Shown one piece after another: positions 1 through 14,629 of a DNA stretch of 64,000 nt. The stretch lies in NCBI RefSeq assembly GCF_904846615.1, contig NZ_CAJHBK010000001.1, forward strand, positions 1,736,001-1,800,000. The letters run 5' to 3'. Source of the DNA: Psychrobacter sp. JCM 18902 (lineage in GTDB: Bacteria > Pseudomonadota > Gammaproteobacteria > Pseudomonadales > Moraxellaceae). Numbering within the stretch: the stretch's first letter is position 1; the number at the start of each line of letters is the position of its first letter. The notes beneath the pieces were generated by a model. That model was not told the origin of the DNA, ran no database searches, and was given only the letters and a program-made list of their open reading frames with translations. Both the position numbers and the translations under genes were made by a program.

Positions 1-340
1 AATTCGCATTTACAATAGGATCAGCAATCACGCCCTCGCCCTCTACAAACGTCCAACCCTTATCGCCCATAAATGGATGCACCACTGACAGCGAAATCAG
101 GTCTTGCAAACCCTTTAGCTGACGGTAAATAATGGTACGATGTGCCCAAGGACATGCAAGCGAGAGATATAAATGATAGCGATCAGCTTCGGCTTTAAAA
201 CCGCCAACACCTGATGGGCCTGCGCTGCCATCGACCGTGACCCAATTTCTAAAACCGGCATCTTCTCGCTCAAAGCGTCCACCGCTCGCCTCTGTGTCAT
301 ACCATTTGTCTTGCCATTGACCATCAACCAATAGACCCAT
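1..340 (-). CDS. yqjG: Glutathionyl-hydroquinone reductase (YqjG/ECM4 family), partial
   Basis: This is the N-terminal 113 codons of a gene that runs off the left edge. Translation from the ATG at 338-340 on the minus strand starts MGLLVDGQWQDKWYDTEASG and contains SLACPWAHRTIIYRQLKGL. The CPWAHR motif, with the catalytic Cys, is the hallmark of Xi-class glutathione transferases that reduce glutathionyl-hydroquinones in the cytoplasm. A GAGGAGA Shine-Dalgarno sits just upstream of the ATG. A longer open frame in another phase on the same strand is only a shadow. Family assignment is firm; the C-terminal half cannot be seen. Confidence 0.9.
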   Translation of the reverse strand, partial: MGLLVDGQWQDKWYDTEASGGRFEREDAGFRNWVTVDGSAGPSGVGGFKAEADRYHLYLSLACPWAHRTIIYRQLKGLQDLISLSVVHPFMGDKGWTFVEGEGVIADPIVNAN

Positions 341-608
341 ATCACTCTCCTCAACATTCTATTTTGATATAATTTTTGTGAACTATGAGTACTGTGAAAC
401 TATTATCACAATCCTCACTTTATTTTGAGAATGATGATACCAGTTATATATCACCTAGCTATCAAGGTTTGTAGTTCTACTGACAATAAAAAATAAACCA
501 ATTTCAATCACTATTTAATATAACTACATAAAAAAATATTAAAAGTCACTTAATATAAAGTGTGATAATCATTATTATGCTAATAAAAAAATTTATTAGA
601 AATAAAGC

Positions 609-636
609 TTGCAAAGTCTCAAAAACTTGATAGAAT
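609..636 (+). promoter_or_regulatory. Probable sigma-70 promoter of tRNA-Val
   Basis: TTGCAA at 609-614 and TAGAAT at 631-636 are separated by 16 bp and lie about 15 bp before the mature tRNA 5' end, a normal arrangement for a single tRNA gene. Assignment is by consensus match only. Confidence 0.55.
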
Positions 637-650
637 ACTCAACCTAAATA

Positions 651-784
<134 letters not shown>

Positions 785-968
785 TGTAGAGGAAAAGAAA
801 ACTATACGTCGATTCAAATCTCCTCTTTTCTCACTTTCAGTAAACGTCATCAAAAAGTGTGTGTGCCCAAATTGTGCCTAAGTTGCGCCTGCTCTCTATT
901 TCACCTTTCTTTCAGAGTAGCATTTTCGACCTCTACCCTAGATTATCTAAAACCACTTTAAAATCAAT

Positions 969-1193
969 TTACTTCTCTTTATCTAGCGGCTCGTTAGGTA
1001 CATAAGTAAATAAATCACCTACCTCAATATCTAGTGCCTCACAAATTTTATCCATAGTGTCAAAATCTATTCTTGAAGTCTGTTCGTTATATATCTTGTG
1101 CACTGTTGACTTGCTAATTCCTGTCATTCTTATTAGATCTGCAACCTTCATACGTCGTTCAGCTAGTAGCACTGGTAAATTACATAAAATCAT
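969..1193 (-). CDS. XRE-family HTH regulator
   Basis: A 74-aa protein that is almost entirely a Cro/CI-type helix-turn-helix: RMKVADLIRMTGISKSTVHK forms the HTH, and ALDIEVGDLFTYVP is the typical end of the HTH_26/XRE domain. It is divergent from the excisionase-like gene and integrase, so it is the likely repressor of the integration module. Three copies of an AAGTACTTNTATCGA-like element lie in the intergenic region. Function is inferred from fold and position. Confidence 0.85.
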   Translation of the reverse strand: MILCNLPVLLAERRMKVADLIRMTGISKSTVHKIYNEQTSRIDFDTMDKICEALDIEVGDLFTYVPNEPLDKEK

Positions 1194-1217
1194 TAATAAT
1201 TCCTTAATAGACTAAAA

Positions 1218-1285
1218 AAGTACTTGTATCGACTAACGATAGCTAGTAAAGTACTTCTATCGAACAACAAATTACTTTTATAGAA
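1218..1285. promoter_or_regulatory. Candidate operator repeats of the XRE regulator
   Basis: Three related direct repeats, AAGTACTTGTATCGA (from about 1218), AAGTACTTCTATCGA (from about 1249) and AATTACTTTTATAGA (from about 1270), lie between the divergent XRE and excisionase-like genes. They are spaced roughly 20-31 bp apart, as expected for repressor operators. Binding is inference. Confidence 0.5.
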
Positions 1286-1343
1286 TTATTTGTTATTTTG
1301 ATAAAATAACCTAGTTATTTAATTGGCTTACAAGGAATTTATT

Positions 1344-1559
1344 ATGTCACATACCTACCTAACTACCCAAGAGCTTTCTGAGCTCATCAAATATAACCCT
1401 CGTACTATCCGTAATGAGCTCAAGGATAGCGTGCTTATCGAAGGCATTCATTATATACGCCCGTTCGGTGGTCGTAAGATTTTGTACATTTGGGAAGAGA
1501 TTGAAAAAGATATGCGCACTGGCATCGCCGGTAGCATCAACGCCATGGCACTACAATAA
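1344..1559 (+). CDS. Excisionase-like small DNA-binding protein
   Basis: A 71-aa protein from the ATG at 1344, chosen over an upstream TTG because AAGGAA lies at the right distance. TYLTTQELSELIKYNPRTIR followed by a short wing (GIHYIRPFGGRKILYIWEEI) matches a winged MerR/excisionase-type HTH. It stops 11 nt before the integrase start with a GGAGAAATAGG Shine-Dalgarno between, so the two are co-transcribed. A role as recombination directionality factor is inferred from size, fold and position. Confidence 0.7.
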   Translation: MSHTYLTTQELSELIKYNPRTIRNELKDSVLIEGIHYIRPFGGRKILYIWEEIEKDMRTGIAGSINAMALQ

Positions 1560-1570
1560 GGAGAAATAGG

Positions 1571-2773
1571 ATGGCTAGTATTAGAACCCGCAGAGGTAGC
1601 AATATGCTATTCGTCGATTTTTATTATATGGGTATACGCTGTCGGGAGACGACAAACCTGACGGACACGCCAGCGAATCGCAAAAAGCTTGAAAAAGTGA
1701 TTGAGAAAATGGAAGCAGAAATCATCCTAGGTTTATTCAACTACGCTAAGTACTTTCCAAAAAGTGACAAAGCGGCAGAAATGGTAGCGTTGAACGATCG
1801 CAAGGAATGTATCAACACTAATACACCTTCCTTTGAGCAGTTTGCAAAATTATGGTTTTCTGAAAAAGAAATTGAATGGCGTGATACTTATAAGCGCAAA
1901 ATAAAGGAGATTATTGATATGTACTTGATTGTTAAGTTTGGGACTAAGCCCATTCATCTCATAAAAAAGACAGATGTATTAGCCTTCCGTTCATCGCTCG
2001 CCAAAGTAACGTACGGAAAAGCTAACAAACATCTGTCAGCGGCACGCATCAATTCGATCATGGTACCTTTAGGTATGATACTAAAAGAAGCAGCTAAACG
2101 CTATCAGTTTGACAACCCTTACTACGATATCAATGCGCTCAAACAGCCTAAAACGGATATTCAACCATTCACACTGAATGAGGTTTGGACGTTTATTAAT
2201 GGTGTGAGAGCAGACTATCGCAATTATTATCTGGTACGTTTTTTTACAGGGATGCGTACGAGTGAGATTGATGGGTTGACGTGGGAGAACATTGACTTTG
2301 ATCGACGTGAGATTGTGATCAAACAAGCTTATGTTAAAGGCAAAATTGTTCCTCCTAAGACTCAAGAGTCTTACCGTGCGATTCAAATATCACCTTGGGT
2401 CTATGATGCTCTAAAAGAACAGCAAACTATTACTTATGGACGCTCTGATTATGTGTTTTGCGCACATACTGGTGAACCACTTGATTATAACAACGTGAAT
2501 AAGCGTGTTTGGCACCCTACTCTTAAGATTTTAGGTCTCAAGAAGCGCAATGCTTATCAGAGCCGTCATACCGCAGCGACGTTATGGTTAGCTGCTGGCG
2601 AAAGTCCTGAGTGGATAGCCAGTCAAATGGGACACTCTACGACCAAGATGCTATTCAATACTTATAGTCGCTACGTACCGAACATGACTCGGCAGGATGG
2701 TAGTGCATTTGAAGCATTGGTCAACCGAAGTCAGATTGCTCAGGTATCTAATGACAAGGAGGCGTCAAAATGA
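1571..2773 (+). CDS. int: Tyrosine integrase of the tRNA-Val island
   Basis: A 400-aa site-specific recombinase. The N-terminus (MASIRTRRGSNMLFVDFYYM) is the DUF3596-type arm-binding domain, then a SAM-like core-binding domain at about residues 85-190, then the catalytic domain. Catalytic motifs are visible: FFTGMRTSEIDGLTW (Arg I), YQSRHTAAT (box II, with Tyr in the first position of HxxR as in other integrases of this group), QMGHSTTKM, and NTYSRY carrying the nucleophilic Tyr. It lies about 0.85 kb inside tRNA-Val and its 3' end overlaps the next gene by 4 nt. It most likely catalysed insertion at the tRNA. Confidence 0.92.
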   Translation: MASIRTRRGSNMLFVDFYYMGIRCRETTNLTDTPANRKKLEKVIEKMEAEIILGLFNYAKYFPKSDKAAEMVALNDRKECINTNTPSFEQFAKLWFSEKEIEWRDTYKRKIKEIIDMYLIVKFGTKPIHLIKKTDVLAFRSSLAKVTYGKANKHLSAARINSIMVPLGMILKEAAKRYQFDNPYYDINALKQPKTDIQPFTLNEVWTFINGVRADYRNYYLVRFFTGMRTSEIDGLTWENIDFDRREIVIKQAYVKGKIVPPKTQESYRAIQISPWVYDALKEQQTITYGRSDYVFCAHTGEPLDYNNVNKRVWHPTLKILGLKKRNAYQSRHTAATLWLAAGESPEWIASQMGHSTTKMLFNTYSRYVPNMTRQDGSAFEALVNRSQIAQVSNDKEASK

Positions 2774-3060
2774 AAATCATTGATTACGATAAACTGCATG
2801 CGACGTTTAAACCTAGTGGCTATATCAGTAATGATGCAAATAATATGGCTAACTCTCTAATTTGTGAGCTCTATATTCAGTCAGGTAGTGGTTTGGCTCG
2901 TTTCTTAAATGTGGATAGCTGCTTTGATAATCATATGGCAATGCGAGTATGGGTACAGAAGCGCTTAGATGCCAATTCTGACTATGTACTTGATGAGATG
3001 CGTGGTCAGCTACAGAGTGCGCTTTACGAGCTACTACCACACACTGGCTATGGGTACTAA
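2770..3060 (+). CDS. Hypothetical protein downstream of the integrase
   Basis: 96 aa, starting in an ATGA overlap with the integrase stop, so it is translationally coupled. It is soluble and slightly acidic with no recognised motif. Position suggests an accessory of the integration module. No function can be assigned. Confidence 0.7.
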   Translation: MKIIDYDKLHATFKPSGYISNDANNMANSLICELYIQSGSGLARFLNVDSCFDNHMAMRVWVQKRLDANSDYVLDEMRGQLQSALYELLPHTGYGY

Positions 3061-3070
3061 GGAGAATACT

Positions 3071-3397
3071 ATGAGTGTTAAGCTTCAGCCTAGTATGACT
3101 CAAAATGCTCGAGATCTAAGAGTTTGTGCAGACTATTGGGCATATTCAAACAATGACGGATATGATGGCTATATTGAACATGTAAATGCACTTTGTTGCC
3201 AATATGAGATCAGCTTACACGTTTTGTTTGAAACGATAGGTCAATGTTTTGCTTATTTAGATGATGTGCTATGCGAATACTGTGGCTATATTTGTCCTTT
3301 AGAGGTACCAGCAGATATTCCTTACATGCGCTCAAAACAGAGCTGGTGTTGTGAGGTATGTGAGCACGCTGCATGGCGTGAGCATAATAACCGATAA
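3071..3397 (+). CDS. Cys-rich hypothetical protein
   Basis: 108 aa from the ATG at 3071, chosen over an upstream start in the same frame because TAAGGAGAA precedes it directly and the longer version would overlap the previous gene. The C-terminal half carries CEYCGYICP and CCEVCEH, a four-cysteine arrangement that could bind zinc. It is the last gene of the integrase operon and is followed by a clear terminator. Function unknown. Confidence 0.7.
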   Translation: MSVKLQPSMTQNARDLRVCADYWAYSNNDGYDGYIEHVNALCCQYEISLHVLFETIGQCFAYLDDVLCEYCGYICPLEVPADIPYMRSKQSWCCEVCEHAAWREHNNR

Positions 3398-3403
3398 ATA
3401 TTT

Positions 3404-3436
3404 AAAGCCAAACAGTTTATGTTGTTTGGCTTTTTA
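3404..3436 (+). terminator. Terminator of the integrase operon
   Basis: An 11-bp perfect stem AAAGCCAAACA / TGTTTGGCTTT with an 8-nt loop, followed by T residues, 6 nt after the last stop codon of the operon. Confidence 0.85.
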
Positions 3437-3551
3437 TTGTCTGACGACATCTGTTGTCATAAAGACTTTTATATATATTGTTTTACCAACATAGTTCGGT
3501 TAAAGTAAATTGGTATTAAACTCTACAATAATTCCAATGGACGGAACTACT

Positions 3552-3680
3552 ATGGCAAAACCTAGCAACTCCTATACTGACAATAGTTTCGCGTCCTCTG
3601 ATCTAAAGACTATTTTGCACTCTAAACGTGCCAATATTTACTACCTTTCTCATTGTAGGGTAATGCAAAAAGTGACTTAG
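3552..3680 (+). pseudogene. cas1: cas1 (type I-F) N-terminal remnant fused to a CRISPR repeat
   Basis: A 42-codon frame from the ATG at 3552. Residues 15-32, SSDLKTILHSKRANIYYL, followed by SHCRVMQK, match the conserved start of type I-F Cas1, where the family has DLKTILHSKRAN-YYL-HCRV before the beta-rich N-terminal domain. After codon 40 the frame continues directly into GTGACTTAG, the 3' half of the CRISPR repeat, and stops there. Everything else expected of the locus (rest of cas1, cas3, csy1-4, CRISPR leader) is missing. The catalytic C-terminal domain of Cas1 is absent, so this is a non-functional scar of a deletion. Confidence 0.85.
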
Positions 3681-4283
3681 AAATGATTACTTCCTTGGTG
3701 ATTATAAACCCTAGTCTTCATCACCGCTCAGGTGACTTAGAAAATCTATCAACGCCAAGCTCTTAGCATCCTGATCTTCATCACCGCTCAGGTGACTTAG
3801 AAAAGTGATGGACTGATAAAATCTTTAAGTGGCTTCTTCATCACCGCTCAGGTGACTTAGAAATATTAACGCAAGAACACTGCGTTGACTTGATTCTTCA
3901 TCACCGCTCAGGTGACTTAGAAAAGTTAAAGGGCTTTTCGTTAGGTGAGCTAGAGCTTCATCACCGCTCAGGTGACTTAGAAATTGTAAGATAGGCTCAT
4001 CATCTGCGCTGCTAACTTCATCACCGCTCAGGTGACTTAGAAACATATCAATCACCCATCTAAGTAAGTTGAGCTCTTCATCACCGCTCAGGTGACTTAG
4101 AAATTACGAACATCAAGACAGGCAAAGAAATGCGGCTTCATCACCGCTCAGGTGACTTAGAAATGCTGCACCAGGGTCGCCCGAATAAGGCACAACTTCA
4201 TCACCGCTCAGGTGACTTAGAAACAGCAGCAGCAGGGAAAGGATGGGCGCAAAGACTTCATCACCGCTCAGGTGACTTAGAAA
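3656..4283 (+). CRISPR. Orphan type I-F CRISPR array, 10 full repeats plus one half repeat
   Basis: Ten identical 28-nt repeats start at 3716 and recur every 60 nt to 4256-4283, separated by 32-nt unique spacers. An eleventh repeat at 3656-3683 keeps only its 3' part (GTGACTTAGAAA) and is joined to cas1 sequence, so there are ten spacers in all. The repeat contains the hairpin TCACC-GCTCA-GGTGA and ends in CTTAGAAA, which with the 28/32 geometry identifies type I-F (Cas6f/Csy4-processed). No cas genes and no AT-rich leader remain in the window. The array can act only if cas genes are supplied elsewhere in the genome. Confidence 0.95.
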
Positions 4284-4452: not shown

Positions 4453-5556
4453 ATGAGTTTGTTTCAAACCTTTATCCAGAAAATAGGCATAGTAGTCTTA
4501 GTCTTGGGTATAAGTGGTTCAGTATTAGCGGCAGACTTTAAGTCTATTCAAGCATCTGCAGAATCAGGAGATGTCAATGCTCAGCTTGAGCTTGCTGAAA
4601 GATATGAAGCGCTAGAAAAGTCAAATCGTAAAGTTGTCAACTTTGAACCTCAAGAATTATATTATGAAGGTAAAGCAGTAGATGAAAATGCTAAAGAAGC
4701 TTTGAGCTGGTACCTAAAAGCAGCTAACCAAGGTAACGCTGTCGCCCAAGCGAAGGTTGGCGGTATTTATCATGATGGTAGATATGTCAAACTAGATTAT
4801 TCCAAAGCATTTGAGTGGTATCAAAAAGCGATCAAAGAGAATGTAGCCGAAGCACAGTTTGGCTTAGGGCTGATATATGCTTACGGTAATGAAGTACCTA
4901 AAGATCCAGAAAAATCACAATATTGGCTTACAAAAGCAGCAGAACAAAACTATGTTCCCGCTTTGTTTAATCTTGCATATGAGTATCATGGTCACTACGA
5001 CGATCATGAAAGTCAAATAAAAGCGCTTGAGCTATTTAAAAAAATGGCTAATGGAGATGACCCAAACGATGAGTATGTTGTTCGTTCTCAGTACGCATTA
5101 GGCTCTATGTACTACGATGGTTATGGTACTGAAGAAGATTATCACAAGTCAGCATACTGGTATCAAAAAGCGGCTGAGCACGGACTTACTAGCGCGCAAA
5201 CAGAGCTTGCTAGGATGTACTCTAGAGGTGAGGGTGTAGATCAAAGTCATGATGAATCTATAAAGTGGTATAAAAAAGCAGCGAATCAAGGGAGTTTGCT
5301 GGCGCAGACGGGACTAGCAATGATGTACTACGATGGTGAAGATGTCGCGCAAGATTATACTCAAGCGTTTAAATGGTTAAATAAAATAGTAGAGAGCGGT
5401 AAAGATGACTACTCTATTCAATTGATGCTTGCTTCGTTATACCTCAATGGCGATGGAGTCACTCAAAACGATGCTGAAGCGACCAAATGGTATGCTAAAG
5501 CTTGTCAAAACGGTAATCGCTACGGCTGTATTCAATATCGAGAATTAACCCAATAA
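4453..5556 (+). CDS. Secreted Sel1-repeat protein
   Basis: 367 aa from the ATG at 4453 (GGAAG Shine-Dalgarno 8 nt upstream; two upstream in-frame starts are less likely). A hydrophobic signal segment (IGIVVLVLGISGSVLA) with cleavage near VLAAD is followed by about eight Sel1-type helical repeats of about 36 residues, for example EALSWYLKAANQGNAVAQAK and SAYWYQKAAEHGLTSAQTEL. Sel1 proteins are adaptor solenoids that mediate protein-protein contacts in the periplasm or cytosol. It ends 14 nt before the next gene, so the two are probably co-expressed. The partner and process are unknown. Confidence 0.85.
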   Translation: MSLFQTFIQKIGIVVLVLGISGSVLAADFKSIQASAESGDVNAQLELAERYEALEKSNRKVVNFEPQELYYEGKAVDENAKEALSWYLKAANQGNAVAQAKVGGIYHDGRYVKLDYSKAFEWYQKAIKENVAEAQFGLGLIYAYGNEVPKDPEKSQYWLTKAAEQNYVPALFNLAYEYHGHYDDHESQIKALELFKKMANGDDPNDEYVVRSQYALGSMYYDGYGTEEDYHKSAYWYQKAAEHGLTSAQTELARMYSRGEGVDQSHDESIKWYKKAANQGSLLAQTGLAMMYYDGEDVAQDYTQAFKWLNKIVESGKDDYSIQLMLASLYLNGDGVTQNDAEATKWYAKACQNGNRYGCIQYRELTQ

Positions 5557-5570
5557 TAGAACAAATCCAT

Positions 5571-6248
5571 ATGAAAACAGTCACATTCTGTCTACTAGCC
5601 AGCCTAGTTTTAAGCGCTCACGCAGCGGAGATAAAAACCAACTCATCGCTCGATGATACCGATCAAGTGGTGAATCAATTTCCGGTAGAGACTGCCTTAC
5701 TCAATATCTATACTAAAGAAAGCAGTAGAACCTTATCAGCTATGGTGTATGGTCATAAAGAGTCAATTGAAATCAAGGTAACACCAAAAGGAAACCTGAC
5801 ATTTGAAAACATACTTGTTCAAGGTGCCGAGCAACGCTTCACCTATAGGTACGATGATGAGGTCATCGAAGAATCTATCGGCATCAACTACTTCACCCTT
5901 AATCCTTTAACTTTTTACGGTTTTGATAAGCCTTCAGGCAAGTATTCATTAGCGACGCAGACAGCGGTCATTCCTAAAATGGCGAGCATTGGTGATTCAA
6001 ATCAGTTTGTCACTGAACGTATCTACTTAGATAGTAGCAAAAATACACCAGTTGATTTTTACAACTTAACTTGGTCCCTATCACGTGCCAGCGCAAATAC
6101 TGCATGGCTCTGTATAGATATTGATATCTATGAAAATTCGTCCGAATGCTATCAGATCGATGGCAGTGGCAATATATTGCAGAGCAAAAAACGTTTGCAG
6201 TATTGGGCAGAAAATAGCTTTGAGATCATAAACTATATGAGTGAATAA
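5571..6248 (+). CDS. Secreted hypothetical protein, paralogue of the gene at 58003
   Basis: 225 aa with a clear signal peptide (MKTVTFCLLASLVLSAHA). It is co-linear with the protein encoded at 58003-58710: both contain NQFPVETALLNIYTK / TQYPVETAMLNIYTK, VTPKG, INYFTLNPL, a -GKYSL--QT--IPKMA block and a C-terminal SSECYQI / SSECYKI. Unlike its paralogue it lacks a lipobox. The family is unknown to me. Location behind a Sel1 protein suggests an envelope role, but this is only context. Confidence 0.8.
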   Translation: MKTVTFCLLASLVLSAHAAEIKTNSSLDDTDQVVNQFPVETALLNIYTKESSRTLSAMVYGHKESIEIKVTPKGNLTFENILVQGAEQRFTYRYDDEVIEESIGINYFTLNPLTFYGFDKPSGKYSLATQTAVIPKMASIGDSNQFVTERIYLDSSKNTPVDFYNLTWSLSRASANTAWLCIDIDIYENSSECYQIDGSGNILQSKKRLQYWAENSFEIINYMSE

Positions 6249-6759
6249 TGGTGTCAAAACCACCTTCAGTACAAACCACCTGTCTTTGCCACCAAATTTA
6301 TATGATTTAGACACACAGGCATTCGCGTTTATGATCAACATTTCTTTCATGTCGATAATTAATCGAGTGTGTCATGCATGTGTTCATTGAACAAAAAATA
6401 GCTTGAGCTATATGAATTAATAATGAAAATTATTATAAATTTTAAGAAGTGATTTGAAATAATCATCAAACCTTATTTTGACATCTTAGAATTACAGGTC
6501 AATCTGTATCAAGCATCTAAGCCTTACTCTTCTATTAATGGAACATTTTCGCTCTACTTTCCACTCCCAAGCTATCACCCTAAACTGCTTTTCTAGTGAT
6601 CTTATCCATTCATGCACCTACAAACTCTAGCTACACTCCTAAACTACCTCAGATAAGATCACCATAGATTGTCTATAAAAGCTCAAAAGCATAGCAAGAC
6701 GTCACCTGCTGTCGTGTATTTCATGATTTTTCCTCAAAGCCTCACAAATTGGCTTTCAA
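6249..6759. other. Intergenic, 511 bp, no gene seen
   Basis: AT-rich, with no convincing frame, RNA gene or hairpin on either strand. It must hold the promoter of the recombinase operon that follows. I could not find a repeat here matching the region after the operon (13207-13459) that would mark the ends of a separate element. Confidence 0.5.
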
Positions 6760-7359
6760 TTGTTTGCTAATCCTCGTAAATTATTAGTAGAGGTCAATAC
6801 ACAGGATATAACGACCAAACCATCAACTCGATATCTCAGTGAGAAAGATATGAAATCACTATCGATTGCTAAGCTACAAACACTCAATGTGCTTGTATAT
6901 CCAGAAATCGTTGGTTTATTTGATATTTATACCTGCCATATTAGACCGCTGCTTGACAGCAAGACTATCGAACTTGAGCAAAGTAATGCTTGCTCGAAAC
7001 TTACCCGCTTTATAAAAGAGGATAAAAAGTGGTTCTTGCTGAACAACTTTGAGCTATTTCATATAGTAAAAAGCCCTTATATTGATTTTGATGTATTAAG
7101 ACAAGAAGTGGCTGTGAAATATACCTCAAAGAGTCAGTTTGATTTTGGCATCAGTTTTTACGAGCTTATTGACCTCATTGCTCAACATAATAAAAAGATA
7201 GATATTAAGCTCGTTTATACGCAGCTAAATGAGCTCTTGAATCAAGAAATAAACCAAAAACTATTTGGCAAAACTATTTTTGCTATTACTACATTTTGTC
7301 GGCTTATAAAAATAAATGAGCAGACTTATCATAAACGTCGTCCTACTGGAGTATTGTGA
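6760..7359 (+). CDS. Small first protein of the recombinase trio
   Basis: 199 aa if started at the TTG at 6760; an in-frame TGA lies about 36 nt upstream and the first ATG is at 6850 (MKSLSIAKLQTLNVLVYPEI), so the start is uncertain. It is helical and soluble with no motif I recognise. Its stop overlaps the start of the next gene by 1-4 nt. A small protein followed by two large recombinase-like proteins recalls the gamma-mobile-trio (GmtX/Y/Z) arrangement and the Tn554-type three-gene transposition operon. Which, if either, applies cannot be settled by eye. Confidence 0.7.
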   Translation: MFANPRKLLVEVNTQDITTKPSTRYLSEKDMKSLSIAKLQTLNVLVYPEIVGLFDIYTCHIRPLLDSKTIELEQSNACSKLTRFIKEDKKWFLLNNFELFHIVKSPYIDFDVLRQEVAVKYTSKSQFDFGISFYELIDLIAQHNKKIDIKLVYTQLNELLNQEINQKLFGKTIFAITTFCRLIKINEQTYHKRRPTGVL

Positions 7360-9833
7360 TGGCTCAAGATAATGACACCTCACCCAATGAGGAACAATGG
7401 CTGTCTGCAAAGACCATTGATTATTTAAAAAGTGAGGAAGCGTTTGTTTACCCAGAAGCTATTATAGATGCTATCTCCACCATCATTATCGCAGTACATG
7501 ACAGTTATAAACCCTCTAATAATTCTATTGAACCTTTATTAGAGATGACTGTACTAATACTACAAGATGAGCCTATTGCCTCTAAGTATATGCAAATCAG
7601 TCGTACTCATTTAGCAGAAAAACCACTGATGATGCAGCTGTTTATCCTAATGCAGAATATTGTCACCAAACAACAATTAGGCCACTCATTGCAACACCTA
7701 GTTTGGTTAGCAATAGCAATGCACACTGCAGCTTTACTTATCATTCAAGATAAGAAAACTCATACCAATAATATACTGATGCAGTTTAAGATGGCACAAT
7801 TCTCAGCATCTTCTAGGCGCAAATGGCTTTGGAACGCACTTCCTGACATCTTCCACACTGAGATGAGTATAGAGCGTATATTATCGGTATTTAATAGTCT
7901 ATTAGATCAGCAAAAAAGCGAACTTGTAGCACTAATCAATGGCCAAGCTACTCATACAGAGAAAGTAAAAAAAGACAAGTCTGACATAAAAGCCAAGCTG
8001 AGCCAGATAGATAAAATAACGACTGCCTACCAACACGCACACGACTTGCATGCACCAAAACCTGAACGCAAGAAGCCACCAAAAAATAACAGCATTAAAC
8101 CCATAAACCTATCCGATGATAAACCAATATATCCTCTCGATTATGAAGCTACAAACTCTAACTGGAATAGTGAGCCTGATAAAGACAATTGGAACACCAC
8201 ACCTGATGATGTCGAACACAGCTCTACCACCATAGACCTAGCATTTCTGGAAGCTAATACCGAAACCTATGAAGGGTTAATGACGAGCTTTGAAGAGTAC
8301 ATCGATCACAATGAATTGCCCTATATCAGCTACGACAACTATCCAAACCCTCTAGTTAGAAACTCTATACCGCTGCAAACTATCGACTTATCGCTGCAGC
8401 AAAACTATATGTCCCAGCGTAATCTCGCGCTCAACTCTAACACACGCTTACTTTCCGTTGCTGGTTATCAAACCCTATTTGCAGCACTACACCAAGATGC
8501 TAAATCTTTACCAGAGTCAGATAATAATAAAACCTGCGCTGGCATTTTATTGCTATCAATGCTTACTGGCCTTCCAGTTAAGTCCTTAATAATACCAGGC
8601 TATATCGGTCATCCTAGTATTTTTAGCATCCATGACAAAAGAGCTTATATTAAACATAGCCTTGGTATTACTAAACGATCTGTTAGCCAAACGTTAACAA
8701 AGGAAGATTACGAAAATCATTCTGACACTATTAAAATTCCACTGCCATTATGGCTAATTGATAACCTGCTGGCTTGTCAGTTGCCTATAAAAGAAGAGTT
8801 TACGACTTACCTTGCCAACTTGCGTAATAGCCTTGGACTGCCCTATCTTTCGGTCAATCGAATAGAAACAGTATTACATGTTGTACTCTCTCGCTATACG
8901 CCAGATTGTCATGCACATATTGCCGATATCATTTGCCGCACGCCAGCGCCCCATGCTCCAGCGATGTACTATAGCAGCCATACTAGTGAAGGGATCATCG
9001 CTCACTATAAGTCGGCGCTAAGTGTACTCAGCAATATAAGTAGTTTTGACTTAGCTTATATCACCCCTTGGCATAAATACACCATAGGCTCTGGGTTTGC
9101 ACTCAAGCTCGAAACCGTTCGTAACATCATAGATGAGATAAAAACTTGGGTAGATCAAAGTACAAATTATGATGAGCACTTTAATAGAACCAGTATTTTT
9201 ATATGGTTTATCTTTTGCCTTTTAACGGGCGTGCGACCGAACAACGGTCTTGGCAAGATGTACGATATCGATCTTGATATGGGGTGGCTAGAGATCAACG
9301 ATAAGCCCGTTAAGAAAGTAAAAAGTGATCGTCTGATACCACTATGCCTCACCCTTGTACGCCATTTGACAAAATATAGAGACTATATAATTGACTATCA
9401 GGCTAAGCATCAATTGAAGCATGACATCAGCACTACCATTGATGATATTCGCTTAGGTAACGATGAAGCGTTATTGAAAATTTTGTCTGCAAGTGTAAGT
9501 AACCTAAAAGATATTAAGCGCGGTGACACCTATAATTTTACCAAAAACGTTATTGATGCCAACCCTTACTGGACTCGTCACTTTGTGCGTACTCAGCTTG
9601 AGAAACGTAGTGTTCAGCTGCCACTCATCAACACTATTATTGGTCATGAAAAATCTCGTCAAGAGGTATTAGGACGTTTCTCATCGAGCAGTAAAAGAGA
9701 TATAAGACGTGTAGCACCTGTATTTGAGCAGATCGCTGAACAGTTAGGGTTAAACCTTATAGAGATAAACAACTATTCTAAGATAAGCCATATTGAAAGA
9801 ATATATGCGGGAGTAGACCATGTTGATAGATAA
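7359..9833 (+). CDS. Large tyrosine-recombinase-like protein, nucleophile replaced by Phe
   Basis: About 824 aa from the ATG at 7359 (GTG at 7356 also possible). Residues 1-250 are helical, 250-330 an Asn/Asp-rich linker, and the C-terminal third is a degenerate tyrosine-recombinase domain: TGVRPNNG (Arg at about 627), RHFVRTQL (HxxR at about 742-745), IIGHEKSRQEVLGRFSS (His at about 764). Large recombinases with this GH-x(n)-GRYSS ending carry the nucleophilic Tyr where this protein has Phe (about 775). That suggests a catalytically dead partner subunit or a different Tyr. It overlaps the next gene by 14 nt, so the two are probably made together. Numbering counts from the GTG. Confidence 0.8.
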   Translation: MAQDNDTSPNEEQWLSAKTIDYLKSEEAFVYPEAIIDAISTIIIAVHDSYKPSNNSIEPLLEMTVLILQDEPIASKYMQISRTHLAEKPLMMQLFILMQNIVTKQQLGHSLQHLVWLAIAMHTAALLIIQDKKTHTNNILMQFKMAQFSASSRRKWLWNALPDIFHTEMSIERILSVFNSLLDQQKSELVALINGQATHTEKVKKDKSDIKAKLSQIDKITTAYQHAHDLHAPKPERKKPPKNNSIKPINLSDDKPIYPLDYEATNSNWNSEPDKDNWNTTPDDVEHSSTTIDLAFLEANTETYEGLMTSFEEYIDHNELPYISYDNYPNPLVRNSIPLQTIDLSLQQNYMSQRNLALNSNTRLLSVAGYQTLFAALHQDAKSLPESDNNKTCAGILLLSMLTGLPVKSLIIPGYIGHPSIFSIHDKRAYIKHSLGITKRSVSQTLTKEDYENHSDTIKIPLPLWLIDNLLACQLPIKEEFTTYLANLRNSLGLPYLSVNRIETVLHVVLSRYTPDCHAHIADIICRTPAPHAPAMYYSSHTSEGIIAHYKSALSVLSNISSFDLAYITPWHKYTIGSGFALKLETVRNIIDEIKTWVDQSTNYDEHFNRTSIFIWFIFCLLTGVRPNNGLGKMYDIDLDMGWLEINDKPVKKVKSDRLIPLCLTLVRHLTKYRDYIIDYQAKHQLKHDISTTIDDIRLGNDEALLKILSASVSNLKDIKRGDTYNFTKNVIDANPYWTRHFVRTQLEKRSVQLPLINTIIGHEKSRQEVLGRFSSSSKRDIRRVAPVFEQIAEQLGLNLIEINNYSKISHIERIYAGVDHVDR

Positions 9834-12800
9834 TATTCACCTGCCCAAAATCATCGATGGCTTGGCAAATTTTGATGGCAGAAAAAGACGCTACGTGCCT
9901 TATCCTTCTGAACTCAAAGACGATAGCCCTAAAAAATACGACATACAGCTACTGGCCGATCTACAGACTGAGTGGGATTTCCTGCAAAGAACTCATCCTG
10001 GTAATATTAGGTTCACCAAATCTTTTGACAAATATTACGAACAAGTACTTTGGCCAAGTAATCGCACCTTTTTAGTTATACCGAGCCCTGTAAGTTTTGC
10101 TGATGAGTTATGGTTATTACAGAGTCAAGAACTAGACCAATTTCAGCGTGACTTTAATAATAAGCTAAAACCCTTGTCTAACGAAGGGTTCGATAAGTTT
10201 CAAGTTGTTGTTCAAGACAAAATTTCTAAAGCCTATAAAACAACCAAAAAATTAACACAAGCATGGCAGACTGTTAGTCAATTTATTGATTATCAAAATC
10301 AACATTACATGCTTGCAAAACACTATTACCCTAAGGTAGTCGCGCCGCAGCCCACAAAGTTCAATCCATTGATTATTAATAACGACTGGGTCAAAAATGG
10401 CAAGTCACTGGTCAAGATTATTCGTGTCGCACAAACACACTGGAATCAAACAGCTAATTATAGCCAAGATCAGATTTTAGGCTGGCTGATATTTTCAGGG
10501 ATTGTGTATGGTGGTATTAATGAAATACAGATGCTCCAAGGGTGGCTTACCTCATTGCTCGCCAAAAAACATCAGCCATTCATCAAAGAAAGGATAATAA
10601 TCTCACCGTGCTTTGTGCAAAAGGGCTTTGGTAATGAACGAGAAGAAGAAAGTGACAAGCTTTATAACACCAAGCAAATCGTCGTAGATGTAGTCAGTCA
10701 GTGTTGGCTGATGCGTTACCATAAAAACAGCAGTCAAACAGATATCAATCATATCATTGACAAGCTGTCAGCAGATAAGATTGAGCTATACTTGACCACT
10801 GTTTTATCTGACCTAATCAAGCCTTTAAATATTAAACCCCTCTCCTTTTCAAAATTTTTATATTACGCAAGCTACCACTGGGAGATGCTCGATGGCGCTG
10901 ATATTGATCATGCTTCAGTTGGTATACTTCGAGGTATGCATAACACTGCTGGACTGAGCACGCAGGATTTTGATAATTTTTTGAACCAAAAATATCAACA
11001 TAAAGTTGAGCACTATAATCTAGAACATATTTTAGCGCTATCTATCAGTAAAAGCTCTATTGCTCAAAAAGATACGACCAACATTTCTACCAAAAAAATA
11101 GAGGTTAGAAAGTCTGATTTGATTATGAGTCTCACTAAAGACTTTAAAATAGATAAAAAATATGCAAAGAAAAAATCCAATAGCAATCCGTACACAATTA
11201 TCGAAAGAGTACAAAAACGCTATAAGCAATATGATGACTTAAGTGAAAAGATTTTATTAGATTGGGTGCTCAGTTTACTCAATCGAAAAGAGTCAAAATC
11301 ACTTAGTAATGAGTCTATTTTGAAATATATTAGAACCATAGGCTATGAGTGGTTGTATTTCACAACAGCGCAACCGCTTGATATTTGGTCAGAGGAAGAG
11401 TTTGAGGAACTTTATGAAGATATTTTAGAGTACAAAGCTGTCGTACGGAACAATACTGACATTGGATACTCTGCCAATTTATTGAAGAGTATGCACAACT
11501 TTGCTAAGAGCAAATACAATTTACCCTCCGTGAACTTTCAACAGTCGAAAAACGGTCGGCGTGTACGTGCCGAGCTGATATCACCGCAAGCGTACCAAAC
11601 CATTATCACGCAAATACTGAGTTCTGTAGATATACTAGAGCGGGAGATATTCGCACTTTTATTTATCTTAGTCTATCGTACTGGCATGCGCAAAAAAGAG
11701 CTGTTGGGACTTAAGTATAATGACATCGAAGGCTTAAAAACAGCTGTACCATCAGTGATAATCAGGCCCAATAGCTATCGTCCAACCAAGACTCAAAGTA
11801 GTATTCGCCGCGTTCCCTTATTTGCCTTCCTCAAACCTAATGAACTGAATTTTTTTATTAACTTTGTGCAGAGTAATATTGGCGACAGTTCAAACAAATT
11901 TATCTTTACCTTATCATCGGATCAGCGCCCTATTGATGACCATGTTCCGTTGCAGTTACTCAAACGAGTTTTAAAAGACATATCGGTAGATGATAATGTC
12001 GCAACGCATACCTTTCATGGTTTTAGGCATACGGCAGTGAGTAACCTATCTTTAGCGCTATTAGGTCATCCAGATCTCGTAAAAGCCCTCACCGATTATG
12101 ACGAAAAAGACATATTGCGTATAAAAAAAGGCCTACTTGGGGAGCATATAAATGCACAAGATCGTTGGTACGCTCTATCGGGTATTATGGGGCACTTATC
12201 GCCTGAGCGTAGCTTTGAGTATTACAATCACTTTGCTACTTTGATGGCTACTTATGCGTTGAGTGTTGTTGACATCGGACTACCCAAGCAAACACTGTGC
12301 AACATTACCGAATTCCCTCCTAGAAGGATTGAGGATAATGCTGACATTACTGCTAATGGCATAGTCAGCATACCTAGCATGCGTACACTTTTATTTAAAA
12401 ATATTATAGAAGGCAAACGCAAGTCACCGAAATTCACGATCGAGAACTGTGATAAGCGATTTCTCTTGAGTACAAATACGCCAGCCACTGATGAACTGTT
12501 TGGTCGTTATGGTCTAAACCGAGTACAGCTGCTACTACAGACCTATGATAAAGAGATGCCTTTAAGTAAAGCAGCCCAGTTAGCAAATATTTCTATTCAT
12601 GATGCAAACATTTTAATAGAACGTGCGAGCGAGGTTGCCGCTATCACTACCAAACGCGGCAAACCTCGCTTTGTAAAGCTATCCGATTCAAATAATTCCG
12701 TACTGAGTCCACTGAACATTCAATACCAAAGTGATTTAAGATTACTATCGCTTTTGTTAAGTAATGCCTACCGTCTACGAGAAAAGTCAGGGGCTGACTG

Positions 12801-13206
12801 GACTTGGTTTATTGAGATATGTAGTCAAAAACTGTCTAGTAGCAGAGCATACCTACCATTTAGAAAAGGAGATGAGAAAGAGTTGCAACGTTTCATTGAT
12901 ATTGCTAAGAAACTGCTGCCTCTGAAACGTTGGCTAATGAGTAGCAACGAAGCCTTGTTGATGAAAAATATGTCACCTAACGATTATCAAGATATTAAGC
13001 AGCAATCTAACGACTCGATAGAAGCTATTCATATTGGTATTGCTAGCCGAGATCCTAGAGATCAAACCAACAAATGGCAGTATTCGCCCCTACTACGGTT
13101 TTTTGTGCATATGATGCTAATTACTGATGAGAGGCTAGTTATTAATGATAGTCAGACACAATCATTATTGAATAAGCGCACTCAATGCTTTACAAAAATT
13201 GACTAA
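9820..13206 (+). CDS. Very large tyrosine recombinase with complete catalytic set
   Basis: 1128 aa, start ATG at 9820 behind GGGAG. The catalytic domain is central (about residues 600-815): YRTGMRKKELLGLKYNDI (Arg 624), RPTKTQSSIRRVPL (Lys 657), HGFRHTAVS (His 733, Arg 736, His 737), IMGHLSPERSFEYYNH (His 792, Tyr 801 or 802). All RKHRHY positions are present, so it should cut and rejoin DNA. The 600-residue N-terminal part and about 310-residue C-terminal part (including an HTH-like KAAQLANISIHDANILIERA) are far beyond normal integrases. It is the last gene of the overlapping trio. GmtZ/VPA1269-like or RIT/Tn554-like relatives are candidates. Confidence 0.85.
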   Translation: MLIDNIHLPKIIDGLANFDGRKRRYVPYPSELKDDSPKKYDIQLLADLQTEWDFLQRTHPGNIRFTKSFDKYYEQVLWPSNRTFLVIPSPVSFADELWLLQSQELDQFQRDFNNKLKPLSNEGFDKFQVVVQDKISKAYKTTKKLTQAWQTVSQFIDYQNQHYMLAKHYYPKVVAPQPTKFNPLIINNDWVKNGKSLVKIIRVAQTHWNQTANYSQDQILGWLIFSGIVYGGINEIQMLQGWLTSLLAKKHQPFIKERIIISPCFVQKGFGNEREEESDKLYNTKQIVVDVVSQCWLMRYHKNSSQTDINHIIDKLSADKIELYLTTVLSDLIKPLNIKPLSFSKFLYYASYHWEMLDGADIDHASVGILRGMHNTAGLSTQDFDNFLNQKYQHKVEHYNLEHILALSISKSSIAQKDTTNISTKKIEVRKSDLIMSLTKDFKIDKKYAKKKSNSNPYTIIERVQKRYKQYDDLSEKILLDWVLSLLNRKESKSLSNESILKYIRTIGYEWLYFTTAQPLDIWSEEEFEELYEDILEYKAVVRNNTDIGYSANLLKSMHNFAKSKYNLPSVNFQQSKNGRRVRAELISPQAYQTIITQILSSVDILEREIFALLFILVYRTGMRKKELLGLKYNDIEGLKTAVPSVIIRPNSYRPTKTQSSIRRVPLFAFLKPNELNFFINFVQSNIGDSSNKFIFTLSSDQRPIDDHVPLQLLKRVLKDISVDDNVATHTFHGFRHTAVSNLSLALLGHPDLVKALTDYDEKDILRIKKGLLGEHINAQDRWYALSGIMGHLSPERSFEYYNHFATLMATYALSVVDIGLPKQTLCNITEFPPRRIEDNADITANGIVSIPSMRTLLFKNIIEGKRKSPKFTIENCDKRFLLSTNTPATDELFGRYGLNRVQLLLQTYDKEMPLSKAAQLANISIHDANILIERASEVAAITTKRGKPRFVKLSDSNNSVLSPLNIQYQSDLRLLSLLLSNAYRLREKSGADWTWFIEICSQKLSSSRAYLPFRKGDEKELQRFIDIAKKLLPLKRWLMSSNEALLMKNMSPNDYQDIKQQSNDSIEAIHIGIASRDPRDQTNKWQYSPLLRFFVHMMLITDERLVINDSQTQSLLNKRTQCFTKID

Positions 13207-13459
13207 AACCCTATATCCTGACACCTATTATTTTTTATCATCACCGCAATGACCTTATATCAGAGTTATTCAAAACGATAACGAAACCATTCCATCCATC
13301 ATCGTCTCCACACCTCCTTTAATGATCTATGCGGTCAAATCCGTAGACATTAACTTGGCAGATTTTAGTTATCCCACCTAATATAATAATAAAAAAAACG
13401 CTACCCGATAATTAATCAGATAACGCTTTCCTTATTACTTGTCTAAACTATGTTAAACA

Positions 13460-14629
13460 CTAACGCTCACCCAAGCCTTCAGAAAAGGTTTTGGTTAATG
13501 GCTTAGTCAGATAGGACAGCACTGAACGCTGTTGCGCTTTGATATCGACTGAAGCAGTCATACCAGGTCTAATGATAATTTCATCGCGACGCGCAGCAAA
13601 CTCAGCACCGGTAATTTTTATTTGTACGCGATAATATGGCTCCTCTCCTTTGGGTGTTTGCTCAATCAAAGTATCTGGACTGATATAGGTCACCTTACCC
13701 GTCATAGCACCAAAGATAGAGTAATCATAAGCATCAAGCTTAACGCTAGCGACTTGATTCTCTTTGACATAAGCGATATCCACTGGACTAACTTTAGCTT
13801 CGACGATCAGGTCGCTACTGGTGGGCAATATCTCCATAATAACCTCACCAGGTTTCACAACGCCGCCAATAGTGGTAATTAAGATATTATTTACCTTGCC
13901 CTCAGTTGGAGCAAATAGCTTGGTCTCTTCCAATACTTGTGAATGATCACGCAGCTGCTCAAGCTCAGTATCCAGCTCTTCTTGTGCTTTGGTCATTTCC
14001 GATTGTGCTTCTTCAAAGTACTTGTTTCGCTTATTGGTAATTTGTGCTTGGATCTCAGCAACTTGTCGGCGCAGTTTAATCACGTCAGCTTGGCTGACAT
14101 CACCATATTCTAACAGTGGTTCATTCATACTGAGCTCTTGCTGAGCCAGTACCATCATATTCTGTAGCGAGCTGACATCTTGATCAATGGCTTGCCGACG
14201 GCGGTTATATAGTTGGGTTTGGTTTTCTACGTATTCGCTATAGTTTTTGATTCCATCTGGAAACTTAAGCGGCTTTTCAAATATTTCTGCTTCAAGGCGA
14301 GATAACTTGGCTCTTAGCGCGGCGATCTTCGAACTTGAATTAGCGAATGCCGCTTGCGCCCGCTCTTCTTCTAGTGTGACAACCAGTTGTCCCTTAGTGA
14401 CATCCTCTCCTTCTCGCACTAATATTTCAGTCAATACACCACCCTCAACTGCTTGAATATCCTGCGTTCTAGCACTGGCGATAACCGTTGCTGTGGCACG
14501 GGTTACTTGATCAATTTGAGCAAAATAGGCCCAAACTACCAAGACGATTACCCCTATAAGTGCACCCCAAATAATAATACGGGTACGCCCAACTTTAGGA
14601 TCATGAGACTTATGCTGATAGTTATTCAT
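13460..14629 (-). CDS. Type I secretion membrane-fusion protein (HlyD/LapC family)
   Basis: 389 aa. Residues about 17-37 (IIIWGALIGVIVLVVWAYFA) form the single inner-membrane anchor, followed by a lipoyl-like half, a long coiled coil (about 95-225, Gln/Glu-rich) and a beta-barrel region ending in the HlyD signature GMTASVDIKAQQRSVLSYL. It bridges the ABC exporter and TolC in the periplasm. Its start overlaps the ABC gene by 8 nt, and it closes the minus-strand TolC-ABC-HlyD operon. The obvious substrate is the giant RTX adhesin encoded nearby. Confidence 0.93.
   Translation of the reverse strand: MNNYQHKSHDPKVGRTRIIIWGALIGVIVLVVWAYFAQIDQVTRATATVIASARTQDIQAVEGGVLTEILVREGEDVTKGQLVVTLEEERAQAAFANSSSKIAALRAKLSRLEAEIFEKPLKFPDGIKNYSEYVENQTQLYNRRRQAIDQDVSSLQNMMVLAQQELSMNEPLLEYGDVSQADVIKLRRQVAEIQAQITNKRNKYFEEAQSEMTKAQEELDTELEQLRDHSQVLEETKLFAPTEGKVNNILITTIGGVVKPGEVIMEILPTSSDLIVEAKVSPVDIAYVKENQVASVKLDAYDYSIFGAMTGKVTYISPDTLIEQTPKGEEPYYRVQIKITGAEFAARRDEIIIRPGMTASVDIKAQQRSVLSYLTKPLTKTFSEGLGER

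What the first reader, a model, noticed from the sequence alone, without database searches (positions are those of the whole stretch)
3552..3683. Deletion scar joining cas1 directly to a CRISPR repeat
The first 40 codons of a type I-F cas1 (SSDLKTILHSKRANIYYL...) run straight into the 3' half of a CRISPR repeat. The stop codon of the remnant is the TAG inside the repeat's ACTTAGAAA. One event therefore removed the rest of cas1, all interference genes and the leader, while keeping ten spacers. This is a base-resolution record of how an orphan array can arise.
Basis: partly seen in the sequence, partly recalled or inferred. Interest (0 to 1): 0.85.

Follow-up and report, generated by a model that had tools for sequence, protein, structure and literature searches.

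The report
Recurrent exact deletion of CRISPR-Cas genes
This bacterium lost its CRISPR immune genes by a deletion that fused the start of one gene to the middle of a CRISPR repeat, and relatives lost theirs at the same base pair more than once, which hints at an unknown site-specific way of discarding CRISPR systems.

Summary
Window 3552-3671 holds 40 codons of a type I-F cas1; at 3671/3672 they run into the last 12 nt of the 28-nt repeat, whose TAG ends the frame. Ten spacers and ten perfect repeats follow. Searches of the genome found no other cas1f and no csy3 or cas3f. The orthologous locus in a relative (G051) is intact and matches flush to the junction, and again beyond the array: an in-situ deletion of about 9 kb.

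The scar is not unique. Of 105 Psychrobacter genomes, 8 carry it at 9 loci (one 1 nt shorter, two with mutated tails); a genome of another Moraxellaceae genus has it twice, with its own repeat. Truncated cas1 starts do not form one clade (p-AU 8.9e-5, 101 columns). Three have an intact sister (nearly) identical up to the junction (G028/G027, G092/G090, G296/G298). Breakpoints share one base at most. Cas-targeting spacers, homeology, a common hairpin and a neighbouring integrase were tested and not supported.

Best reading: repeated deletions, at least three of them recent, between cas1 codon 40 and repeat position 17. The mechanism is unknown; recombination moved some copies but does not explain all.

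The parts
3552..3671 (+). cas1 remnant: first 40 codons of a type I-F cas1
   Evidence: PADLOC Cas1fv E 2.7e-12, Cas1f 8.9e-7; TIGR03637 3.3e-6; last 72 nt 78-97% identical to the seven other Psychrobacter cas1 starts it was compared with
3671..3672 (.). junction: cas1 K codon | repeat position 17 (one-base ambiguity at G3672)
   Evidence: same junction at 8 other Psychrobacter loci and 2 loci of another genus
3672..3683 (+). 3' 12 nt of the CRISPR repeat; supplies the stop codon TAG 3678-3680
   Evidence: identical to the last 12 nt of all ten full repeats
3684..4283 (+). orphan I-F array: ten 32-nt spacers, ten identical repeats CTTCATCACCGCTCAGGTGACTTAGAAA
   Evidence: 280 repeat bases without a difference
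3404..3433 (+). terminator-like hairpin upstream of the cas1 remnant, so transcription of the array may start after it
   Evidence: consensus match only
3434..3551 (+). retained cas1 5' flank (presumed cas1 promoter region)
   Evidence: in the stretch 132-250 nt before the junction 65% identical to the intact G051 locus and 72% to intact G100; promoter activity not tested, and the consensus scan found only one weak promoter-like site here, fewer than shuffles give
18..3672 (.). upstream flank orthologous to the intact G051 locus, ending at the junction
   Evidence: 85.5% over 3,688 aligned columns
6702..14000 (.). downstream flank orthologous to the sequence at the end of the G051 array (14000 is where I cut the comparison)
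   Evidence: 83.5% over 7,380 aligned columns

Best explanation
An intact type I-F locus (cas1, cas2-3, csy genes, leader, array) lost everything between cas1 codon 40 and position 17 of a repeat inside its array. This left a dead 42-codon frame and a leaderless array in a genome without the cas genes searched for. Shown: the scar, the orthologous intact locus, and the same junction on several separate cas1 backgrounds. Inferred: each deletion is one step, because one endpoint is fixed in cas1 and the other is fixed within whichever repeat is used, so the number of spacers kept varies (1 to 80) while the junction does not. Inferred and unproven: a process that breaks or joins DNA at these two sites drives the recurrence. 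The orphan array itself most likely has no function in this genome.
For: In-situ loss: G000 vs intact G051 on both sides; G028 vs intact G027: 98.0% over 2,991 bp flush to the junction and 96.7% over 12.8 kb after the array; G092 vs intact G090: 94.5% over 3,130 bp flush to the junction, downstream match patchy (best piece 587 bp at 96.9%). G296 in another genus: cas1 start identical over 101 nt to intact G298, joined to its own repeat's last 12 nt. One clade of truncated cas1 starts rejected: p-AU 8.9e-5, 7 changes on the tree, at least 4 forced by starred branches. Of 9 below-cut-off cas1 matches in the genus that begin at profile position 1, 8 end at this junction (sequences). Recency: 0 differences in 280, 504 and 2,240 repeat bases of G000, G026 and G092, while their cas1 starts differ from each other by 4 or more of 75 bases. 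Spacers kept: 1 to 80.
Against: No mechanism was found that hits both sites. G026 is a mosaic: its last 72 nt resemble G000 (94%), its next 180 nt resemble G066's truncated locus (85-92%), so junction segments do move by recombination. G028 is slightly more diverged from G027 at 72-250 nt from the junction (95-97%) than farther out (97-100%), which also suggests some recombination. The tree rests on 101 columns, 23 of 32 inner branches are open, the bootstrap had not settled, and the truncated label is somewhat clustered (33 of 500 shuffles as low). The G296 contigs end about 100 nt before the junction, so only that stretch speaks there. In genus g2, cas1-array fusions end at varied places, so the hotspot is not general.
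Confidence: 0.78

Rival explanations
1. One ancient junction was formed by chance and then spread among Psychrobacter by homologous recombination (natural transformation is assumed from recall); recipients lost their cas genes in one step.
For: G000, G101 and G026 share a 93-97% identical last 72 nt although G026 is only 52-72% alike over the next several hundred bases.
Against: Backgrounds differ within the last 18 nt before the junction, so crossovers would have to fall within about 9-18 nt, several times. G296 carries its own genus's repeat half and a local cas1 start. One clade rejected. Perfect repeats suggest recent loss in G000, G026 and G092.
Confidence: 0.17
2. The cas1'-half-repeat unit is functional: a Cas1 N-terminal mini-protein or a cas1-promoter-driven array is kept by selection, so an old junction persists.
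For: The 40 codons are open in the nine Psychrobacter copies, and in the last 24 codons the differences among G000, G101 and G026 are synonymous.
Against: G028's frame stops at once; G047 has several amino-acid changes and a decayed array; the synonymous pattern is equally expected if each copy was recently cut from a working cas1. Over 44 codons G000 vs G101 shows 2 synonymous and 1 non-synonymous change, too few to tell. 7 of 8 Psychrobacter genomes with the junction lack Csy3.
Confidence: 0.08
3. Ordinary short-homology deletion with chance convergence.
For: In G122 (genus g2) a cas1-half-repeat fusion lies at a 4-nt match (ATAT), judged by eye against the intact wording of related fragments in the same output.
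Against: In Psychrobacter the shared base is a single G, and none for G028 unless an A was lost later. The junction region is not among the best cas1-repeat local alignments in the 3 loci tested. Chance agreement at both ends is about 1 in 25,000 per extra event (own estimate, about 900 x 28 positions, from no call).
Confidence: 0.04

Closest known systems
Orphan type I-F CRISPR4 arrays of Escherichia coli (Almendros et al. 2016; seen here only as a passage in the review PMC8616872)
   Same: I-F cas genes lost, small array kept.
   Different: There the spacers match I-F cas genes; here 0 of 1,620 spacers tested, 147 of them from loci with the junction, give a credible cas match.
Orphan arrays by degeneration of CRISPR-Cas systems (Shmakov 2020 and Pourcel 2020, known here only as citations in PMC8616872)
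   Same: Array outlives cas genes.
   Different: Here the boundary is resolved to the base and is the same in several lineages.
cas1-array fusions in genus g2 of the same family (Acinetobacter by inference; G122, G126, G215, G217, G229, G230)
   Same: A deletion from cas1 into the array or its edge.
   Different: Breakpoints in cas1 vary (about codon 28 to 104 of the profile) and mostly leave a full repeat, some with part of a spacer before it.

Membership tests
Orphan (cas-less) type I-F array | regular array of identical repeats | tested here: met
   10 identical repeats, 60-nt period
Orphan (cas-less) type I-F array | I-F repeat hairpin and linked I-F cas1 | tested here: met
   5-bp stem in the repeat (DNA parameters); Cas1f remnant; the same repeat beside intact I-F genes in relatives such as G010, G027 and G090
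Orphan (cas-less) type I-F array | no cas genes in the genome | tested here: inconclusive
   Cas1f: remnant only; Csy3 and Cas3f: none. Csy1, Csy2, Cas6f and other CRISPR types were not searched
Orphan (cas-less) type I-F array | leader missing | tested here: met
   leaders of intact loci compared by eye with window 3500-3683; none there
Anti-cas orphan array (E. coli CRISPR4 kind) | spacers match cas genes | tested here: not met
   0 of 1,620 spacers credible; best has 7 mismatches without CC PAM, the two with CC have 11 and 14
Conservative site-specific recombination (att sites) | shared core of 2 or more bases between the two parent sites | tested here: not met
   one shared G at most (by eye)
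Conservative site-specific recombination (att sites) | recombinase gene near each locus | tested here: inconclusive
   present at the window locus; none recognised by eye from the starts of ORFs of at least 120 aa at G028 and G092 (no family search was run on them)
Microhomology or homologous deletion | direct homology at the breakpoints | tested here: not met
   1 nt; in G027, G090 and G051 junction windows score 4-6 against 8-9 for the best cas1 windows
Hairpin-driven deletion | the same hairpin at the cas1 breakpoint in all parents | tested here: not met
   in G298 the break lies at the 3' edge of a hairpin loop, but not in G027, G090 or G051; the repeat does form a hairpin

The most novel reading that the evidence does not exclude
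A dedicated or co-opted enzyme, perhaps part of the I-F machinery or carried by a mobile element, recognises cas1 codon 40 and the middle of the repeat and excises the whole cas operon and leader, so that CRISPR-Cas loss in these bacteria is a site-specific, repeatable switch rather than random decay.
Probability: 0.33. Interest if true: 0.88.

Novelty: new variant of a known kind. Interest (0 to 1): 0.67.

Why it matters
How bacteria lose CRISPR-Cas is usually inferred from absence. Here several losses can be compared at base resolution with intact sisters, and the loss does not look random: two fixed points are used again and again. That makes the mechanism of loss testable in culture and offers a signature (cas1 start fused to the last 12 nt of a repeat) for finding recent losses.

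Tried and rejected
Cas-targeting spacers: 1,620 of the 1,623 spacers extracted (those of 28-36 nt) from 32 loci against the cas regions of 26 Psychrobacter loci, some partial; no credible match. Exact repeat-plus-anti-cas1 guide in viral contigs: 0. Exact junction in viral contigs: 0. Plasmids: 2 records matched, both stopping where intact cas1 stops matching. E. coli genomes: no match. Integrase of the tRNA-Val island as cause: none recognised beside G028 or G092 (by eye). Homeology between cas1 and repeat: not supported in the 3 loci tested. Reduced synonymous variation at the breakpoint: none in 24 loci; the dip at codons 4-12 of the compared region is no lower than one at 84-92. Regulatory guide of the operon as the cutter: its best targets do not lie at cas1 codon 40. 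Junction outside the family: 14 of 390 genomes of a sample of the order, own genus and family included, matched a loose pattern; of the 16 loci only those of G005 and G000 held a cas1 start. Phage match for the ten spacers: none in one blastn search of the array. G184 fragment: cas1 start without an array. Of 18 remnant regions fetched I looked at 9 plus the end of G324; the other 8 were not examined. An early script for repeat-like sites printed nothing, the next stopped on an index error after its listing, and a look for locus titles found none.

Full report
OBSERVATION. The sequence is as described. ATG 3552 opens a frame of 42 codons. Forty are the start of a type I-F cas1; the last two and the stop come from GTGACTTAGAAA, the last 12 nt of the 28-nt repeat. 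Ten full, identical repeats and ten 32-nt spacers follow to 4283. The genome is a Psychrobacter by the company of its repeat: the 8 stretches found in named genomes all bear that name. Its only Cas1f match is this remnant; Csy3 and Cas3f are absent. Csy1, Csy2 and Cas6f were not searched.

IN-SITU DELETION. The same chromosomal place in G051 holds an intact locus: the window matches it upstream at 85.5% over 3,688 columns ending at the junction, and downstream at 83.5% over 7,380 columns, starting at the end of the G051 array and at window 6702. In G051 the array starts about 9 kb after the same cas1 point, so about 9 kb, the leader and an unknown number of spacers were lost.

RECURRENCE. Searching the genus (105 genomes) for Cas1f gave matches in 33 genomes, 26 over the cut-off; the DNA around the junction matched in 83, mostly by its upstream part. 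Nine below-cut-off cas1 matches begin at profile position 1, and 8 of them stop at the same codon: G000, G005, G026, G028, G066, G092 and two in G101; the ninth (G017) runs to profile position 54. Four other below-cut-off pieces (two in G030, one each in G077 and G070) begin later and are not counted, nor is a contig-edge piece in G080. G047 was added by DNA. In these nine loci the cas1 K codon is followed by a 12-nt repeat tail; G028 has one A fewer, and the tails in G047 and the second G101 locus are mutated. The second G101 locus shows no array and G047 only a decayed one. G012 keeps a further decayed piece. In the family a pattern search of 348 genomes matched 11; new were two loci of G296, another genus, which use that genus's own repeat, ATGCAAAAA|GCGGCTTAGAAA, and two unrelated reading frames in G117 and G186. 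The pattern misses G028, so it can miss other variants. G296 has no other Cas1f match.

INDEPENDENCE. G028 is 98.0% identical to intact G027 over 2,991 bp up to the junction and 96.7% over 12.8 kb beyond the array. G092 is 94.5% identical to intact G090 over 3,130 bp up to the junction, with only pieces matching beyond the array. G296 is identical over 101 nt to intact G298; its contigs end about 100 nt before the junction. A tree of 38 cas1 starts (10 truncated; one of the two G296 loci used, the G017 fragment left out) rejects one truncated clade, p-AU 8.9e-5, with 7 changes and at least 4 forced; 101 columns, 23 of 32 inner branches open, bootstrap not settled, and 33 of 500 shuffles as low, so the label is somewhat clustered. 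The repeats counted in G000, G026 and G092 show 0 differences in 280, 504 and 2,240 bases (altered trailer repeats, as in G092, lie outside the count), so these losses look younger than the divergence of their cas1 starts; this assumes that repeats drift freely after cas loss. G101's array mixes repeat variants (25 differences in 840 bases) and gives no such clock. No spacer is shared between truncated loci; one spacer of G026 is also in G082 and G100.

RECOMBINATION TOO. G026's last 72 nt resemble G000 (94%) but its next 180 nt resemble G066's truncated locus (85-92%). So some copies of the junction segment have been moved. This does not easily explain G028, G092 and G296, where the local cas1 sequence reaches the break.

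MECHANISM. What joins the two points is unknown. Parent sites share one G. Homeology (3 loci), a common hairpin (4 loci, present in one), cas-targeting spacers, and an integrase beside the G028 and G092 loci (judged by eye) were tested and not supported. In genus g2 (175 genomes; Acinetobacter by inference) I looked at nine cas1 fragments: six join or lie just before a CRISPR repeat at varied breakpoints, three (G241, G176, G133) run into other sequence (the match list was capped). I rate a site-specific process as the likeliest reason for the recurrence, with modest confidence.

FATE OF GENOMES. Csy3 was found in 21 of 105 genomes. Of the 8 Psychrobacter genomes with the junction only G066 is among them, and it has a separate intact locus. 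So the junction usually marks a genome without I-F interference.

LITERATURE. Seven searches of the paper library (several listings capped) listed no title or abstract start on a recurrent cas1-repeat junction. I read passages of one review (PMC8616872) and otherwise saw only listings. The E. coli orphan arrays with cas-matching spacers are cited through that review. The library lacks most subscription journals, so absence from print is not shown.

VERDICT. A real deletion scar, and more interesting than proposed because it recurs exactly. New variant of a known kind.

Noticed in passing
L117 (G051), L149 (G104), L152 (G103), L154 (G072), L137 (G082), L120 (G066), about 4.5-4.7 kb after the cas1 start, antisense: A mini-array inside the cas region whose roughly 23-nt guide matches a site with a CC PAM 70-150 bp away (seed runs 10-21 nt, every sixth base ignored); guide and target change together between species, as in a self-regulating guide. 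G006 gave a 13-nt run with CC PAM some 830 bp away, G078 none with CC. That such regulatory elements are already described is recalled, not checked.
   Followed up: partly
trailer ends of arrays, e.g. L149, L162 (reverse strand), L159; positions: Many Psychrobacter arrays end in a repeat whose GAAA is replaced by TGAG, followed by a hairpin-like element that is sometimes tandem and is preceded each time by about 19 nt of repeat; the stem letters seem to change in pairs (by eye).
   Followed up: partly
L015, L027, L030, L041: A second kind of array with a fixed upstream boundary: the start of a transposase-like frame (IS256-like from recall) and an atypical first repeat; L015 and L030 have different spacers behind near-identical upstream sequence.
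   Followed up: partly
window 4453-6248: A Sel1-repeat protein gene (PF08238) and a 225-aa gene lie between the array and the flank shared with G051 and G101, so they look inserted at the array's end.
   Followed up: no
window 650-3397 and 7356-13206: tRNA-Val followed by a phage-type integrase (1571-2773), small genes, and beyond the array a large integrase-like frame (9820-13206, PF00589 E 1.6e-8): a genomic-island setting.
   Followed up: partly
L179, L180 (G126, G217): Two cas1 remnants of genus g2 both break just after the same TEY codons (about codon 103) and join a CRISPR repeat, perhaps another preferred breakpoint.
   Followed up: no
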